From Solirubrobacteraceae bacterium (lineage in GTDB: Bacteria > Actinomycetota > Thermoleophilia > Solirubrobacterales > Solirubrobacteraceae): a DNA stretch of 62,036 bases. The DNA is taken from positions 1 to 62,036 of the forward strand of contig JANWLE010000095.1 of NCBI GenBank assembly GCA_025451035.1, written 5' to 3'. Under the pieces are notes generated by a model. The model did no database searches and was not told the origin of the DNA. It saw only the letters and a list, made by a program, of their open reading frames with translations. Numbering within the stretch: the stretch's first letter is position 1; every line of letters begins with the position of its first letter. Shown in pieces: positions 46,732 through 53,117 of this stretch. A program made the position numbers and the translations under genes.

Positions 46732-47730
46732 TCAGCTGGAGCTGATCATCGCGCGCGCAAACTGCTCCGCATCGAACGGCCGCAGATCGTCGAGCGACTC
46801 GCCGACCCCGATCAGCTTCACCGGGATCCCCGTCTCGCGCGTGACCGCGAGCGCTACGCCACCGCGGGCGCTGCCGTCGAGCTTGGTCAGCACGATGCCC
46901 GTGACCTCGACGGCCTGAGCGAACAGCTGCGCCTGACGCAGACCGTTCTGACCGGTGCTCGCGTCGAGCGTCAGCAGCGTCTCGTGCGGCGCTCCCTCGA
47001 GCTGGCGCGAGATGACACGGCGCACCTTGATGAGCTCGTCCATCAGCTCTTCGCGGGTGTGTAGGCGCCCGGCGGTGTCGATGATCACCACGTCAGCCTG
47101 TTCGCGTCTTGCCTGGGCGAGCGCCTCGAACGCGACCGCCCCCGGGTCTGAGCCCTCCGGGCCGGTCACGATCTGCACCTGCGCACGCTGTGCCCAGCCC
47201 TGCAGCTGCTCGGTGGCCGCGGCCCTGAACGTGTCGGCGGCGCCGAGCAGCACGCGCAAGCCCAGTTCGCTGCGCAGGTGCCAGGCGAGCTTGCCGATCG
47301 TTGTCGTCTTGCCGGTGCCGTTGACGCCGACCATCAGGATCACGGTCGGCTTGGGGCGCAAGTCGATGCGCCCGTCGGCGGCGCGCGCTTCTTGCGCCAG
47401 CAGCTCGATCAGCCGCTGGGTGATCGCCTCCGGACCCTGCAGGCGGCCTTCGCTCGCCTCCATCTCGAGCGTCTGCACGACGGCGGCAGTGGTGCTCGCG
47501 CCGACGTCGGCCATGATCAGCGCCTCCTCCAGGCGCTCCCAGGTGTGCTCGTCGAGCGCGGCGAACAGCGTCGCGGTGATCTCACCGGAGAGCGCTTGGC
47601 GGGTCTTGGCGAGGCTTTCGCGCAGCCTCCCGAAGAAGCCGCGGCGCGCACTCGCGGGCCCCTCGGCCGCGGGCTCTGACGAGCCGTCGCTCGCTCCAGT
47701 GATGAACAGCTCGCTCCAGTCTTGCGCCAC
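46732..47730 (-). CDS. ftsY: Signal recognition particle receptor FtsY
   Basis: 332 residues. Short acidic N-terminal region, N domain (ETLAKTRQALSG-like RESLAKTRQALSG), G domain with GVNGTGKTTTIGKLA, DTFRAAATEQLQGWA, DTAGRLHTREELMDEL and TKLDGSARGG. GTPase receptor for Ffh at the membrane. GTG start 47730. Follows smc as usual. Confidence 0.96.
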   Translation of the reverse strand: MAQDWSELFITGASDGSSEPAAEGPASARRGFFGRLRESLAKTRQALSGEITATLFAALDEHTWERLEEALIMADVGASTTAAVVQTLEMEASEGRLQGPEAITQRLIELLAQEARAADGRIDLRPKPTVILMVGVNGTGKTTTIGKLAWHLRSELGLRVLLGAADTFRAAATEQLQGWAQRAQVQIVTGPEGSDPGAVAFEALAQARREQADVVIIDTAGRLHTREELMDELIKVRRVISRQLEGAPHETLLTLDASTGQNGLRQAQLFAQAVEVTGIVLTKLDGSARGGVALAVTRETGIPVKLIGVGESLDDLRPFDAEQFARAMISSS

Positions 47731-47769: not shown

Positions 47770-50700
47770 CTAGAGCGCTGCGATCTGCGGCGCGGCGGGC
47801 TGCTCGGCATCCTGCTCTGAGCCTTGCGTCTGCTCTTGCGGCAGCCGCCGAGAGATGACCTTGGAGACCCCGTCGCCGCCCATGGAGACGCCGTAGAGCC
47901 AGTCGGCCGCCTCCATCGTGCGCTTCTGGTGGGTAATGACGATGAACTGGGCGCGGTCGCTGTAGCGGCGCAGCAGCGTCAGGAAGCGGTCGAGGTTCAG
48001 GTCGTCGAGCGCGGCCTCGACCTCGTCCAGGATGTAGAAGGGGCAGGGGCGGGCGAGGAACACCGAGAACAGGAACGCCAGCGCGGTCATCGACTTCTCT
48101 CCACCCGAGAGCAGCGACAGTCGCTTGGTCGCCTTGCCGGCCGGTGTCACCTCGATCTCCACGCCGAGCAGCTCCTCGCCGGACAGCTCGCCGAGATCCT
48201 CCTCCTCTTGGTCGGCTTGCTCCTCGGGGTCCCCGCCGAGCGGCTGCCCGCCGAGCACGGGACGCGGCGCGGTGCCTTCGCTGACCAGCCGCAGCCGCCC
48301 CGAGCCGCCGGGGAATACGTCGCCCACCAGTTCCTGGAAGTTGCGTGCGGCCGCCTGAAACGTTTCTTCGAATGTCTCGTGGATCTGGCGGTCGGTGTCG
48401 CGGATCACCGTGCGAAGCTCACGCAGCGCGCTCTCGAGGTCCGTACGGCGCGCCTCGAGCTCCTCGACGTGCGCGAGCGCCTCGGCGTACTCCTCTTGCG
48501 CGAGCGGGTTGACGGGGCCGAGCTGCTCGCGGCGGCGCTGGAGGCGCTCAAGCCTCGCCTGCAGGGCCTGCAGCTGCTCCTCGTCGAGCGCTTGCGGTGG
48601 TTGCGGCGGCTGGGAGCTCTGCAGTCGCTCGAGCACCGCCTCCAGCTCGAGGCGCGCCTCCTCGGCCTGGTCGCGCAGGCGCTGTGCCGAGACCTCTGCC
48701 TGCGTGACGAGCTCCCCCTCGGCGCGTAGCTGGCCTTGGATCTCGGCCTCCTGGGCGGCGTGGGCGCGCAGGACGGCGGCCACGCCCTCCCCGTCCTCCC
48801 GGTCACGCGAGAGCTCCCGCTCAAGTGCGTGCAGGCTCTCGTTGACAGCTGCGGCGGCCTGCTCCAGCACGCTGGCGAGGCGCTCCGCGCGCGGTAGGAG
48901 CTCGGTGTCGGTGGTGTGTTGCGCCCGCAGTCGCGCGAGGCGGCGCAGCCGTTCTTGGTGTTCCTGGGCGTGCCGCTCGGCTTGGCGGCGCTCGGCCTGC
49001 AGTTCGCCTTCCAGCTCGGCTCGCCGCACCGCCACGGGGCCTTGCTGTGGCATGCTGCGGCGCTGCTCGATCAGCCAATCGGAGCGTCTCAGTGCCTCCT
49101 TGGCCTGCGTCGCCAGGCGTTCGGTGTCGCGCAGCGCGCGGTCTGCCTCGGTGCGCGCGAGAGCGGCCGCCGTCACCTCCGCCAGCGCGCGCTCGGCCAG
49201 CTCGCGCGCCTGCTGCTCGGCCTGCGCAGCCGCCTCGCTGGCGGCGATGAGACGCTCGCGCTCGTTGCGCTGAGCGAGCACCCGCTCGGAGCCGCCCTCG
49301 GCCATCTGGCGGACTTCGCCACTGCGAGCGAACCACGCCCGCCCGCCGCGCGTTACCGCGATCCCCCGGAAGTCCGGTGGCAGGTCCTGTAGGCGCTCGA
49401 CCACCCATGTGTCGCCGAGCAGGCGCCCGGCGAGCTCGAGTACGCCCGGCGCGCCGCTGATCAGCTCGAGCAGCGGCTGCGCGCCGGCTGCCGGCGGGTC
49501 CTTCGCGACCGGTGTGCCCCCAGCCCGCTCGGGATCGCCGGGCCCTGAGAGCAGCGCGACCGCGCCGTCCGCGCCGGCCCCGTCGAGCAACTCTTGGGCT
49601 GCCTGGATGTCGGCGACGATCGCTCCGTCGAGGCGGCTTCCCAGCGCGGCGGCGAGCGCCAGCTCGTACCCGGGCTGGATCGCCAGAGCCTCGCTCAGCA
49701 GGCTCGGCGCGTCGCTTCTGTGTGAGGTCGATACGCGCTGGGAGTGGCTGCGCAGGAACTGGTTGACGGCGGCGAGCTCCGACCCGACGCTCGCGGCATG
49801 GCGGCGCGCGCTCTCGACGTCCAGCTCGGCTTGCGCGAGGAACTCGCGGGCGAGCTCGGCGCGCTCGTCCGCCTCGCGGCGCTGCGCCTCGACGTCCGCG
49901 AGGCGCTGCGCCAGCAGCTCCGCCTCGCTCTGGGCTTGCTCGCGCTCGGCGAGGAGCTCGGCGATCTCGCGCTCGAGCTCCTGCTCGCGGTGGAGCTCTA
50001 GCTGCGCCAGCTCAGCCTCGAGCGCACTGATCCGCTCCCCGTCGCCGTGCTGCTCGGAGGCGTCGGATGTGCGGGCGACCAGCTCGTTGAGCGTGTGCAG
50101 CTCGATCTCCGCACGCGCGATGCGCTGGGTGACGGTGGTGACGGTGCTAAGCGTTTGTTCGCGGCGCATCTGCACGCGTTCGTGCGAGGAGCGGGCGGCG
50201 AACACGCGGCGGGTCAGCTCCTCGCGTTGCGCTGAGCGCTCGGCCAGTTCGCGCTCGGTCGCGCCGCGACGGTCGATCACCTCCTGCAGTGCCGCCTCGA
50301 CCCGCTGGCGGCGCTCGCGCGCCTGCTGCACGCCGCTCTCGGCGGCCGCGAGCTGCTCGCTCTTGCCGCGCACCTCGTCGACGGCGAGCTCGAGCCGGAC
50401 CTCCAGCATCTGGCGCTCCAGACGCTCGTGCAGCTCGGCGGCCTCGGCCTGCCGCTTTAGTGGCCGCAGTCGTGTGCGCGCCTCGCGCTCGACGTCGAGT
50501 GCCCGGTCGAGGTTCTCCTGGGTGCGCTCGAGCTTCAGTTGAGCGCGGCGGCGGCGCTTGCGGTGCTTGCCGAGGCCGGCCGCCTCCTCGATCAGCAGGC
50601 GCCGGTCGCGTGGCTTTGAGGTCACGATCGCCTCCACCCGCCCCTGCGATATGACCGAGTGGGTCTCCTTACCCAGGCCGGTGTCCGAGAGCACCTCGAT

Positions 50701-51072
50701 CACGTCCGTGAGGCGGCAGCGGGCACCGTTGAGCCGGTACTCCCCCTCGCCCGAGCGGTCAAGGCGCCTGAGGATAGAGATCTCGCTCAGCGGCACCTCC
50801 ACGGTGCAGTCGGAGTTGTCGAGCACGATCTCGACTTCGGCGGAGTTGCGCGCCTTCGCGCCGCGTCCACCGCCGAAGATCACGTCCTGCATGGAGGAGC
50901 CGCGGATCGCGAGCGGGGACTGCTCGCCCATCGCCCACAGAACGGCGTCTGTGACATTGGACTTGCCTGACCCGTTGGGGCCGACGATGACGCTGACGCC
51001 GAGGCCGAAGTCGAGCCGGGTGCGCTCGGGAAAGGACTTAAAGCCCTTCATCGTCAGTGACTTCAGATGCAT
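47770..51072 (-). CDS. smc: Chromosome segregation protein SMC
   Basis: 1100 residues from ATG 51072 (MHLKSLTMKGFKSF), preceded by GGTGAA; the frame is open upstream through rnc but the SMC N-terminus fixes the start. Walker A GPNGSGKSN (31-39), two long coiled coils rich in Glu/Ala/Arg, a hinge near the middle (PGYELALAAALGSRLDGAIV ... GGRAWFARSGE), signature LSGGEKSMTALAFLFSVF and Walker B YILDEVEAALDDLN. Slightly shorter than the usual ~1190. Loads onto DNA with ScpA/ScpB. Confidence 0.97.
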   Translation of the reverse strand: MHLKSLTMKGFKSFPERTRLDFGLGVSVIVGPNGSGKSNVTDAVLWAMGEQSPLAIRGSSMQDVIFGGGRGAKARNSAEVEIVLDNSDCTVEVPLSEISILRRLDRSGEGEYRLNGARCRLTDVIEVLSDTGLGKETHSVISQGRVEAIVTSKPRDRRLLIEEAAGLGKHRKRRRRAQLKLERTQENLDRALDVEREARTRLRPLKRQAEAAELHERLERQMLEVRLELAVDEVRGKSEQLAAAESGVQQARERRQRVEAALQEVIDRRGATERELAERSAQREELTRRVFAARSSHERVQMRREQTLSTVTTVTQRIARAEIELHTLNELVARTSDASEQHGDGERISALEAELAQLELHREQELEREIAELLAEREQAQSEAELLAQRLADVEAQRREADERAELAREFLAQAELDVESARRHAASVGSELAAVNQFLRSHSQRVSTSHRSDAPSLLSEALAIQPGYELALAAALGSRLDGAIVADIQAAQELLDGAGADGAVALLSGPGDPERAGGTPVAKDPPAAGAQPLLELISGAPGVLELAGRLLGDTWVVERLQDLPPDFRGIAVTRGGRAWFARSGEVRQMAEGGSERVLAQRNERERLIAASEAAAQAEQQARELAERALAEVTAAALARTEADRALRDTERLATQAKEALRRSDWLIEQRRSMPQQGPVAVRRAELEGELQAERRQAERHAQEHQERLRRLARLRAQHTTDTELLPRAERLASVLEQAAAAVNESLHALERELSRDREDGEGVAAVLRAHAAQEAEIQGQLRAEGELVTQAEVSAQRLRDQAEEARLELEAVLERLQSSQPPQPPQALDEEQLQALQARLERLQRRREQLGPVNPLAQEEYAEALAHVEELEARRTDLESALRELRTVIRDTDRQIHETFEETFQAAARNFQELVGDVFPGGSGRLRLVSEGTAPRPVLGGQPLGGDPEEQADQEEEDLGELSGEELLGVEIEVTPAGKATKRLSLLSGGEKSMTALAFLFSVFLARPCPFYILDEVEAALDDLNLDRFLTLLRRYSDRAQFIVITHQKRTMEAADWLYGVSMGGDGVSKVISRRLPQEQTQGSEQDAEQPAAPQIAAL

Positions 51073-51085
51073 GCTTTCACCGTCG

Positions 51086-51763
51086 TCAATCCTTCTCCGG
51101 CAGACGCTCGATCGCTTCGCGCGCCGCCTCTTGCTCGGCGTACTTCTTGGTGTTGCCTGTGCCGGTGCCGAGCGTTTCGCCGTCCACCGTCGCCGCGACC
51201 TCGAATGTGCGGCGGTGCGGCGGCCCTTGTGCCTCGACCAGCTTGTATTTGACCTTAGCGCCGCGCTGCGCGAGCTTCTCCTGCAGGGCCGACTTGAAGT
51301 CCACGGGGTTCTCGAGCGCATGTTCTATCTCGAGCGTGAAGGCCTCCACCACCGCCTCGGCGGTCCGCTCGTAGCCGGCGTGCAGATAGCAGGCGCCGAT
51401 CACCGCCTCGAGAACGGATGCGAGCACGCGGTCGGTTTTCAGTTGCTTGAGCACCTGACCGCCCTTCTTGTCGGGCGCGGCGGCGTTCAGGCGCTCACCC
51501 AGCTCGAGGCGTTCGGCTACGGCGCGGCAGGAGCGCCCCGAGACGGTTTGTGCGCGAATCTTCGTCAGGCGCCCGGCGCCGAACTGCTCCGCCTCCAGCT
51601 GCGGGTAGAGGTGGGCCGTGACGGCCAGCGCGAGCACGCTGTCGCCGAGGAACGCCAGGCGCAGGTATGACTCGCTGCGGCGCTCGGTCCACGAGGTATG
51701 GGCGAAGACTTGGCGGGAGAGTTCCTCGGGCAGCTCTTCCAGCAGCTCGTTGAGCAGCGTCAT
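51086..51763 (-). CDS. rnc: RNase III-fold protein with degenerate active site plus dsRNA-binding domain
   Basis: 225 residues, length and operon position (acpP-rnc-smc-ftsY) of RNase III. The dsRBD (about 153-222; GTGTGNTKKYAEQEAAREAI) is intact. In the catalytic domain the signature ERLEFLGD reads YLRLAFLGD: positions equivalent to E. coli Glu38, Glu41, Glu65 and Asp114 are Leu34, Ala37, Ala63 and Ser116. Only Asp41 (Asp45) and Glu119 (Glu117) remain, so two of the four metal-ligand positions (Glu41 and Asp114 equivalents) are lost. The codons were read directly (CTG CGC CTG GCG TTC; GCA TCC GTT CTC GAG) and the frame is open on both sides, so this is not a frameshift. It should still bind dsRNA; normal two-metal cleavage is doubtful. 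Confidence 0.85.
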   Translation of the reverse strand: MTLLNELLEELPEELSRQVFAHTSWTERRSESYLRLAFLGDSVLALAVTAHLYPQLEAEQFGAGRLTKIRAQTVSGRSCRAVAERLELGERLNAAAPDKKGGQVLKQLKTDRVLASVLEAVIGACYLHAGYERTAEAVVEAFTLEIEHALENPVDFKSALQEKLAQRGAKVKYKLVEAQGPPHRRTFEVAATVDGETLGTGTGNTKKYAEQEAAREAIERLPEKD

Positions 51764-51769
51764 CGGCCG

Positions 51770-52018
51770 CTAGCGCCCTTCTGAGTGCGCGAGCACGTAG
51801 TCGACCGCCTCGCCTACGGTGAGGATCTCGGCCGCCTTCTCGTCGGGGATCTGGATGCCGTAGGTGTCCTCGAGCTCCTGCACGAGCGTATAGAGGTCCA
51901 GCGAGTCGGCCTCGAGGTCCTCCTTGAAGCGCGTCTGCTCGCGGATCTGGCCAGGGTCGAGATCGAGCTCGTCCGCGAGGTGAGCCTGGATCAGGGCGAA
52001 TACCTGTTCGCGGGTCAT
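51770..52018 (-). CDS. acpP: Acyl carrier protein
   Basis: 82 residues; phosphopantetheine Ser in EADSLDLYTLVQELED. Acidic four-helix ACP for fatty acid synthesis. DSLD keeps the DSL core. Directly precedes rnc and follows plsX, the normal arrangement. Confidence 0.95.
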   Translation of the reverse strand: MTREQVFALIQAHLADELDLDPGQIREQTRFKEDLEADSLDLYTLVQELEDTYGIQIPDEKAAEILTVGEAVDYVLAHSEGR

Positions 52019-52037: not shown

Positions 52038-53117
52038 TCATGAGATTGGCGGCAGGCTAGCGTCCTGCGCGGACAAGGCCCGGGTTCTCAGCGCCCCGGC
52101 TGCGCTCAGAGCGGCATGGGTCCGCGCCGTGAGGTCTTCCGTTGCGCCGCGCCTGGCGCGCAGGATCGCCTGCGCGAACCCGTGACGGGTGAAACGCCCG
52201 TGCGGCACGACCGCCAGCGCGCGCAGTCCCAAGAGGTAGGCCCCGCCCTGTCCCTCGGGGTCGATGCTGTGCGCGAACGACCTCAACGCGGGCCGCAGCA
52301 GCAGCCCGCCGAGCTGTGACCTGGGTGAGGAGAGCGCGGCTTCGCGGATCGCGCGCAGCATCGTCTGCGAGACGCCCTCGATCAGCTTCAACGCGATGTT
52401 GCCGGTCAGCCCGTCTGTGACGACGACGTCGGCGACGCCGCTGAGCAGGGCGTCGCCCTCGATGTTGCCGACGAACGAGAACGCGTCGCTGACGCCGGCG
52501 CGCTGCGCCAGCTCCGCGTGGGTTTCTATGACGAGCTTGCTGCCGCGGGCGTCCTCCTCGCCGTTGGAGAGCACCCCGACGCGCGGGGTCTGTACGCCCA
52601 GCACGGCCTCGGCGAGCGCGGCGCCCATGAACGCGAACTGCACGAGGTGCTCGCGACGGGCTTCGGCGTTCGCGCCGACGTCCAGCAGTGTCACGGGGTT
52701 GCCCGGGACGGGCAGCGGGATCGCGAGCGCCGGCCGGTAGATCCCGCTCGCCCGCTTGACGTTGAACAGCCCGGCGGCAAGTGCGGCGCCGGTGCCGCCG
52801 GCGCACACCAGCGCACGCGCCTGACCGCCAGCCAGCGCCCGCGCGCATTGGACGATCGACGCCTGCGGAGTCGACCGCGCGGCTCGCGCGGGATCGGCGC
52901 TCTTGGCTATCGATACCGGCGCGTCGACGATCTGCAGGCCCTCGCTGGCCTGGCCGAGCTCAGAGGCGGGGCCATAGAGGATGACGTGCGCCCCCTGCCC
53001 CACCGCGAGCCTCGCACCGGCCGCGACCTCGGCGGGACCGAGGTCCGCGCCGTTGCAGTCAACAGCAACCACGACGGGGTCCGCGCGGCCATCGCCTACA
53101 AGCGAGCTAGCGCTCAC
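52038..53117 (-). CDS. plsX: Phosphate acyltransferase PlsX
   Basis: 359 residues: VVVAVDCNGADLGPAE, CARALAGGQARALVCAGGTG, LLDVGANAEARREHLVQFA, GVLSNGEEDARGS, GNIEGDALLSGVADVVVTDG and TGNIALKLIEG. PlsX makes acyl-phosphate from acyl-ACP for phospholipid synthesis. First-motif variation (AVDCNGADLGP for MDAMGGD) is notable but the rest is typical. GTG start. Confidence 0.92.
   Translation of the reverse strand: MSASSLVGDGRADPVVVAVDCNGADLGPAEVAAGARLAVGQGAHVILYGPASELGQASEGLQIVDAPVSIAKSADPARAARSTPQASIVQCARALAGGQARALVCAGGTGAALAAGLFNVKRASGIYRPALAIPLPVPGNPVTLLDVGANAEARREHLVQFAFMGAALAEAVLGVQTPRVGVLSNGEEDARGSKLVIETHAELAQRAGVSDAFSFVGNIEGDALLSGVADVVVTDGLTGNIALKLIEGVSQTMLRAIREAALSSPRSQLGGLLLRPALRSFAHSIDPEGQGGAYLLGLRALAVVPHGRFTRHGFAQAILRARRGATEDLTARTHAALSAAGALRTRALSAQDASLPPIS

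What the first reader, a model, noticed from the sequence alone, without database searches (positions are those of the whole stretch)
51086..51763. RNase III that has lost most of its catalytic residues but kept its dsRNA-binding domain
Seen: the ERLEFLGD box is YLRLAFLGD, and the positions matching E. coli Glu38, Glu41, Glu65 and Asp114 are Leu, Ala, Ala and Ser; Asp45 and Glu117 equivalents remain. The frame is intact, the dsRBD is typical, and the gene sits in the conserved acpP-rnc-smc operon. Known: Glu41, Asp45, Asp114 and Glu117 hold the Mg ions for cleavage. Inference: the housekeeping rnc locus of this organism encodes a non-cleaving dsRNA-binding protein, or one with different chemistry. 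If this is the only rnc, rRNA processing must be done another way.
Basis: partly seen in the sequence, partly recalled or inferred. Interest (0 to 1): 0.75.

Follow-up and report, generated by a model that had tools for sequence, protein, structure and literature searches.

The report
RNase III with a pared-down active site
A group of bacteria (the order Solirubrobacterales) carries, as its apparent only RNase III, a version missing several textbook active-site residues but keeping the two that matter most, so it is probably a working RNA-cutting enzyme with a simpler metal site rather than a dead one.

Summary
The only RNase III found in this Solirubrobacterales genome has Leu, Ala, Ala and Ser at E. 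coli positions 38, 41, 65 and 114, and keeps Asp45 and Glu117. It is not sequencing error: in 137 aligned rows of the order, Ala41, Asp45 and Glu117 are each in 136 of 136 with a letter, and Glu65 survives in 3 of 135. The 94 rows aligned from the rest of the class and phylum all keep Glu41. The Glu41 loss maps to one change at the base of the order. I do not support "non-cleaving". The retained pair are the most critical residues in E. coli mutants; Asp114 does not touch Mg; and Mini-III enzymes, which cut dsRNA, naturally have Ala41/Thr114 with Asp45/Glu117. The nuclease domain is as constrained as the dsRBD, 16S and 23S flanking helices persist with compensatory changes, and 114 of 120 genomes of the order show one RNase III-domain gene. 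Best reading: an active RNase III with a Mini-III-like two-carboxylate metal site and a valley resembling the engineered "bacterial Dicer" (E38A/E65A/Q165A). Activity is inferred, not shown. New variant of a known kind.

The parts
51086..51763 (-). rnc: full-length RNase III (nuclease domain + dsRBD), 225 aa
   Evidence: ORF; Pfam; TIGR02191 154.7 bits, under its 166.25 cut-off
51341..51727 (-). RNase III nuclease domain (residues 13-141)
   Evidence: PF14622
51641..51667 (-). signature box YLRLAFLGD (residues 33-41): Leu at E38, Ala at E41, Asp45 kept
51575..51577 (-). Ala63, the E. coli Glu65 position
51407..51433 (-). DRVLASVLE (residues 111-119): Ser at D114, Glu117 kept; the GExxSGGRxKxSILAD run usual in the phylum is not recognisable before it
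51101..51295 (-). dsRNA-binding domain (residues 157-221); Ala165 where E. coli has Gln165
   Evidence: PF00035; alignment
51770..52018 (-). acpP, directly upstream of rnc
   Evidence: name from the sequence and operon position (recalled family knowledge)
52038..53117 (-). plsX-like gene upstream of acpP
   Evidence: name recalled
47770..51072 (-). smc, directly downstream of rnc (start MHLKSLTMKGFKSF)
   Evidence: name recalled
46732..47730 (-). ftsY-like gene downstream of smc
   Evidence: name recalled

Best explanation
The gene encodes the organism's housekeeping RNase III, and the protein most likely still cuts dsRNA. The metal centre is reduced to the Asp45/Glu117 pair: Glu117 bridges two Mg ions and Asp45 holds MgB, while water or RNA phosphate replaces the lost Glu41 ligand of MgA. 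Ser or Glu stands in at the outer-sphere position 114. This is the residue set natural to Mini-III RNases, here in a full-length RNase III with a dsRBD. Loss of the negative charges at 38 (in part of the order) and 65, with Ala at 165, makes the RNA valley like that of the engineered E. coli 'bacterial Dicer' E38A/E65A/Q165A. That predicts tighter dsRNA binding and looser site choice, and the tighter binding may offset weaker metal binding. Shown: the residue pattern, its fixation in the aligned rows of the order, a single mapped change for Glu41, one gene in nearly all genomes searched, undiminished constraint, retained rRNA flanking helices. Inferred: cleavage, metal geometry, relaxed specificity, and that the helices are its substrates.
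For: Asp45 and Glu117 are each in 136 of 136 order rows with a letter, alongside Ala41 in 136 of 136. E. coli mutants (PMC8708148 Table 1, passages): E41A, D114A and E38A keep weak activity in vitro in excess Mg, whereas E117K/A/Q are inactive and D45A is low in vitro and inactive in vivo. MgA is held by E41+E117, MgB by D45+E117, and D114 binds none directly (PMC9291653, passages). All 7 Mini-III sequences aligned have Ala41, Thr114, Asp45 and Glu117; Mini-IIIs cleave dsRNA and E106Q (the Glu117 position) abolishes this in B. subtilis (PMC5141509, passages). Mean nuclease/dsRBD identity ratio is 1.01 in the order, 1.01 in the rest of the class, 0.99 in the phylum. PF00636: one match in 114 of 120 order genomes, two in 2, none in 4. 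Flanking helices of 19-37 bp with few mismatches in 14 of 14 16S and 14 of 14 23S loci read, 12 of each from the order. Within the order, double-sided changes in 5 of 27 columns (16S, 12 loci) and 5 of 21 (23S, 11 loci).
Against: I found no biochemistry for this clade (no paper in the held library). Table 1 gives E65A and E38V as inactive in vivo and E41A, E65A and D114A as low in RNA binding in E. coli, and no combination found here is listed. In E. coli, E41 is a direct MgA ligand. Helices flanking rRNA could be kept for folding, or cut by another nuclease; they were picked for complementarity, and one of 14 16S helices did not beat the best of 200 shuffles. No 23S rRNA was found in the window's own assembly, so its own helices were not seen. 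NCBI's equivalog model scores the protein under its cut-off. No compensating acidic residue was identified: an acid at window residue 111 goes with Ser114 in 95 of 103 rows and with Glu114 in 22 of 31, only a weak trade-off at most.
Confidence: 0.76

Rival explanations
1. The protein is a non-cleaving dsRNA-binding protein, kept for RNA binding or ribosome assembly like the mitoribosomal RNase III relatives, and rRNA helices are opened by other nucleases.
For: Four of the usual acidic residues are absent in the window. Mitoribosomal large-subunit chains are among the Foldseek hits. E65A and E38V are inactive in vivo in E. coli.
Against: The two most critical residues are invariant in the aligned rows of the order. 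The nuclease domain is as conserved as the dsRBD. The same pattern occurs in Mini-IIIs, which cut dsRNA. One RNase III-domain gene in 114 of 120 order genomes.
Confidence: 0.12
2. A stronger form of the best explanation: the enzyme is active but has shifted metal use (for example Mn rather than Mg, or a single-metal mechanism) or needs a partner such as a ribosomal protein, as B. subtilis Mini-III needs L3 in vivo.
For: Glu41 is a direct MgA ligand. E41A and D114A E. coli enzymes are weak and need excess Mg. Mini-III activity on pre-23S depends on L3 (PMC8708148, passages).
Against: No direct evidence. The full dsRBD is kept, which Mini-III lacks.
Confidence: 0.3
3. The nuclease domain is a transferred or duplicated Mini-III that replaced the old domain.
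For: Same residues at 41, 45 and 117 and Ser for Thr at 114; Leu38 also in 5 of 7 Mini-IIIs aligned.
Against: The rnc tree puts the order inside its class as one clade (support 96 starred; class 100 starred) with the four altered columns left out (whole-protein tree, Mini-III not included). acpP and smc both flank rnc in 121 of 135 loci read. The best solved relatives by sequence are full-length RNases III and no Mini-III is listed at E up to 0.001.
Confidence: 0.03
4. Assembly or sequencing error in the window.
For: The window is from a draft assembly of 122 contigs.
Against: Ala41 is in 136 of 136 order rows with a letter, including single-contig genomes.
Confidence: 0.005

Closest known systems
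Canonical bacterial RNase III (rnc; E. coli, A. aeolicus, T. maritima)
   Same: Descent, operon, domain order (nuclease + dsRBD), Asp45 and Glu117; best fold matches 1o0w, 7r97, 2nug.
   Different: No Glu41, Glu65 or Asp114 (and no Glu38 here); the GExxSGGRxKxSILAD run is rewritten.
Mini-III RNase (MrnC; B. subtilis 4oun, 6tnn)
   Same: Ala41, no Glu at the aligned position 65, Thr/Ser114, with Asp45 and Glu117 as the remaining acidic pair.
   Different: Mini-III has no dsRBD, and the three annotated records seen have it between cysS and rlmB; the window gene is an rnc by descent.
EcEEQ, engineered E. coli 'bacterial Dicer' (E38A/E65A/Q165A; 7R97)
   Same: Position 38 not Glu, 65 Ala, 165 Ala in the window (L/A/A); 16 of 137 order rows are exactly A/A/A (definition).
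   Different: EcEEQ keeps Glu41 and Asp114. Ala165 is also common outside the order (41 of 47 class rows, 24 of 47 phylum rows).
Mitoribosomal protein mL44 and other catalytically dead RNase III relatives
   Same: RNase III fold; mitoribosomal large-subunit chains appear among fold hits (identity as mL44 recalled).
   Different: Dead members lack the Asp45/Glu117 pair (recalled, not tested); here both are invariant.

Membership tests
Bacterial RNase III (rnc, class 1) | Nuclease domain followed by dsRBD in one chain | tested here: met
   PF14622/PF00636 and PF00035 over cut-off
Bacterial RNase III (rnc, class 1) | Orthology: gene tree and acpP-rnc-smc context | tested here: met
   Order nests in its class; both neighbours seen by motif in 121 of 135 loci
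Bacterial RNase III (rnc, class 1) | NCBI equivalog TIGR02191 over cut-off | tested here: not met
   154.7 bits against 166.25
Bacterial RNase III (rnc, class 1) | Four-carboxylate cluster E41, D45, D114, E117 | tested here: not met
   A, D, S, E in the window
Bacterial RNase III (rnc, class 1) | Divalent-metal-dependent dsRNA cleavage | not testable with these tools
   needs purified protein
Mini-III RNase | Active-site set Ala41, Asp45, Thr/Ser114, Glu117 | tested here: met
   7 of 7 Mini-III sequences compared have A/D/T/E; the window has A/D/S/E
Mini-III RNase | No dsRBD | tested here: not met
   dsRBD present, 64.7 bits
Catalytically dead RNase III relatives | Loss of the Asp45/Glu117 pair | tested here: not met
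   both in 136 of 136 rows with a letter; that dead members lack the pair is recalled

The most novel reading that the evidence does not exclude
An entire bacterial order runs its sole, housekeeping RNase III on a two-carboxylate (Asp45/Glu117) metal centre fixed by one ancestral Glu41 loss, reached convergently with Mini-III, together with a naturally 'Dicer-like' neutralised RNA valley. This would show that the four-carboxylate centre in the textbooks is dispensable in vivo.
Probability: 0.6. Interest if true: 0.6.

Novelty: new variant of a known kind. Interest (0 to 1): 0.5.

Why it matters
RNase III is a model for two-metal RNA cleavage and a relative of Dicer and Drosha. An order that replaced Glu41 once and kept it lost gives a natural test of which ligands are needed, and of whether Mini-III's simpler centre can work in a full-length enzyme. 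It also warns that 'missing catalytic residue' calls are unsafe here: the retained pair may be what counts.

Tried and rejected
Rejected: sequencing error (relatives share the residues). Not found: a second RNase III or Mini-III in the genome or in most genomes of the order (PF00636 does catch Mini-III, 96.5 bits). Not borne out: a compensating acid at window residue 111. Rejected: an early idea, in my notes, that the third EcEEQ change was Q153P; the paper says Q165A, and the Pro153 tally is not used. Rejected: a first impression that Gln74 is shared with Mini-III; the alignment places the Mini-III Gln elsewhere.

Uninformative: duplex energies of long rRNA flanks against dinucleotide shuffles (output partly cut; for 16S mostly no better than shuffles because GC-rich flanks pair freely over long stretches; of the 23S loci several beat all shuffles and several did not). 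The ungapped helix scan replaced it: best helix above the maximum of 200 mononucleotide shuffles in 13 of 14 16S loci (L264 the exception, 40.5 against 44.5) and 14 of 14 23S loci. Its cross-genus control was often as high or higher, because the arms themselves are conserved, so it does not test specificity. The helices were picked for complementarity, so the share of paired cells is biased upward. One search's double-sided counts (7 and 8 columns) include relatives outside the order; one search recounts the order alone (5 and 5). One search's acpP pattern was mistyped and found none; one search replaces it.

Rows left out: 21 duplicate loci; L053, L146, L154, L155 before the tree, which used 94 of 232 rows (43 order, 28 class, 22 phylum, E. 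coli); 18 duplicate loci. Four order rows (L042, L049, L050, L053) were put in family f1 by me from their record titles and similarity, not by a tool.

Full report
What is there. The ORF at 51086-51763 on the minus strand is intact (225 aa) and carries a ribonuclease III domain and a dsRBD over Pfam cut-offs. It misses NCBI's RNase III equivalog cut-off (154.7 against 166.25 bits). It sits in plsX-acpP-rnc-smc-ftsY (gene names from recalled family knowledge).

Is it a clade feature? I aligned 230 unique loci with the window and E. coli (21 duplicates removed). Rows were chosen across families and genera; not all matches were fetched. In the 137 rows of the window's order (families f1-f4, window included, some partial or frame-broken), Ala41, Asp45 and Glu117 are each in 136 of 136 with a letter; Glu65 survives in 3 of 135 (Ala 105, Ile 13, Pro 11, Ser 3); position 114 is Ser in 103, Glu in 31, Thr in 1, Asp in 1, gap in 1; Glu38 is kept in 76 of 136. 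In 47 rows from the other families of the class, Glu41 and Glu65 are in 47 of 47, while 114 is Ala 30, Asn 10, Asp 6, Gly 1. In 47 rows from the rest of the phylum Glu41 is in 47 of 47, Glu65 in 46, Asp114 in 42 and Asn114 in 5. So change at 114 is seen through most of the class, and loss of Glu41 and Glu65 marks the order. The class rows also lack the GExxSGGRxKxSILAD run usual in the phylum. Named hits place f1 in Solirubrobacterales: Svornostia abyssi J379 (L046, same protein as L157 of f1) has T/A/D/A/S/E.

History. A 94-row tree built without columns 38, 41, 65 and 114 makes the order one clade (96 starred) inside the class (100 starred). The Glu41 to Ala change needs one step; 38, 65 and 114 need 10, 8 and 9 (quick method; long branches warned for L234, L214 and E. 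coli). By short motifs, acpP and smc both flank rnc in 121 of 135 order loci; four more show acpP and end at the contig edge, nine show smc without acpP seen, one has smc and an edge; one further locus (L154) had no rnc motif. This is an rnc by descent.

Only RNase III? In the window's genome PF14622 and PF00636 each match once (assembly 94% complete). PF00636 recognises Mini-III (96.5 bits). Over 120 order genomes of at least 90% completeness, 116 match: 114 once, two twice (G287, two pieces of the protein; G238, a second, different copy at a contig end), and four not at all. I saw no match that looks like a Mini-III beside an rnc.

What the losses mean. In the E. coli post-cleavage structure Glu41 and Glu117 hold MgA, Asp45 and Glu117 hold MgB, and Asp114 binds no Mg directly; Glu38 and Glu65 lie at the ends of the RNA valley (PMC9291653, passages). 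In E. coli, E38A, E41A, E65A and D114A are weakly active in vitro in excess Mg, E117K/A/Q are inactive, D45A is low in vitro and inactive in vivo. Against my reading, E65A and E38V are inactive in vivo, E41A, E65A and D114A are low in RNA binding, and no combination is listed (PMC8708148 Table 1, passages). All 7 Mini-III sequences I aligned have Ala41, Thr114, Asp45 and Glu117; Mini-IIIs cut dsRNA, and E106Q, the Glu117 position, inactivates the B. subtilis enzyme (PMC5141509, passages). The window's active-site set is thus Mini-III-like. EcEEQ (E38A/E65A/Q165A) was engineered to bind dsRNA more stably and to cut without its sequence preference. The window has L/A/A there; 57 of 137 order rows differ from E/E/Q at all three sites and 16 are A/A/A, although Ala165 is common elsewhere too.

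Is it alive? Mean identity of the nuclease domain relative to the dsRBD is 1.01 in the order, 1.01 in the rest of the class and 0.99 in the phylum, so there is no sign of a relaxed nuclease domain. In 20 genomes chosen for contiguity, 16S was found in 14 and 23S in 17. I read 14 16S and 14 23S loci (12 of each from the order; left out were G120's over-long 23S match and the partial matches of G046 and G029). Each has a flanking helix of 19-37 bp with few mismatches (13 of 14 and 14 of 14 above the best of 200 shuffles). Within the order, columns with changes on both sides number 5 of 27 (16S, 12 loci) and 5 of 21 (23S, 11 loci). The helices are shared with relatives that keep Glu41. I infer that they are still RNase III substrates; I did not show it. 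The window's own assembly yielded no 23S.

Structure. The AlphaFold2 model (21 sequences, mean pLDDT 85.4, pTM 0.70) best matches full-length RNases III (1o0w E 3.9e-11; 7r97; 2nug). Whole-chain TM-scores are only about 0.5 with large rmsd, which I take to mean that the two domains are placed differently.

Literature. Searches for Thermoleophilia with 'RNase III' and for Solirubrobacter with 'ribonuclease III' found no paper in the held library. A broader search found 19 papers, of which 15 were listed; none of those titles is on this point. PMC8708148, PMC9291653, PMC5141509 and PMC4357697 were seen as passages only.

Verdict. Observation confirmed; 'non-cleaving' not supported; 'different chemistry' plausible in the sense of a pared-down, Mini-III-like metal site. 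Activity remains to be measured.

Noticed in passing
class-wide, (e.g. L054-L083): In 47 class rows outside the order, position 114 is Ala or Asn in 40 while Glu41 stays, and the GExxSGGRxKxSILAD run is rewritten, so RNase III of this class departs from the textbook more widely.
   Followed up: partly
L127-L153 and others, mainly family f3 and part of f4: A sub-group of the order has Glu at position 114 (31 of 137 rows) with Ala41, often after Pro (RPLPEITEA).
   Followed up: partly
L145, L148, L151, L153 (genus g24 of family f1, genomes about 1.7-1.8 Mb): A small-genome genus with an unusually divergent RNase III (42-45% identity to the window, against 56-74% for the other full-length f1 matches listed).
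   Followed up: no
16S and 23S flanks: Both flanking helices share a core TTGAAAAC or close to it, with a G-G mismatch in 12 of 14 (16S) and 10 of 13 (23S) loci counted, perhaps a conserved internal mismatch near a cut site.
   Followed up: no
L146 (G005:C75:14611-15177): rnc matches in two adjacent pieces inside a 1306-aa open frame, lacking query residues 127-153; it looks like an in-frame deletion or assembly join in a relative of the same genus.
   Followed up: no
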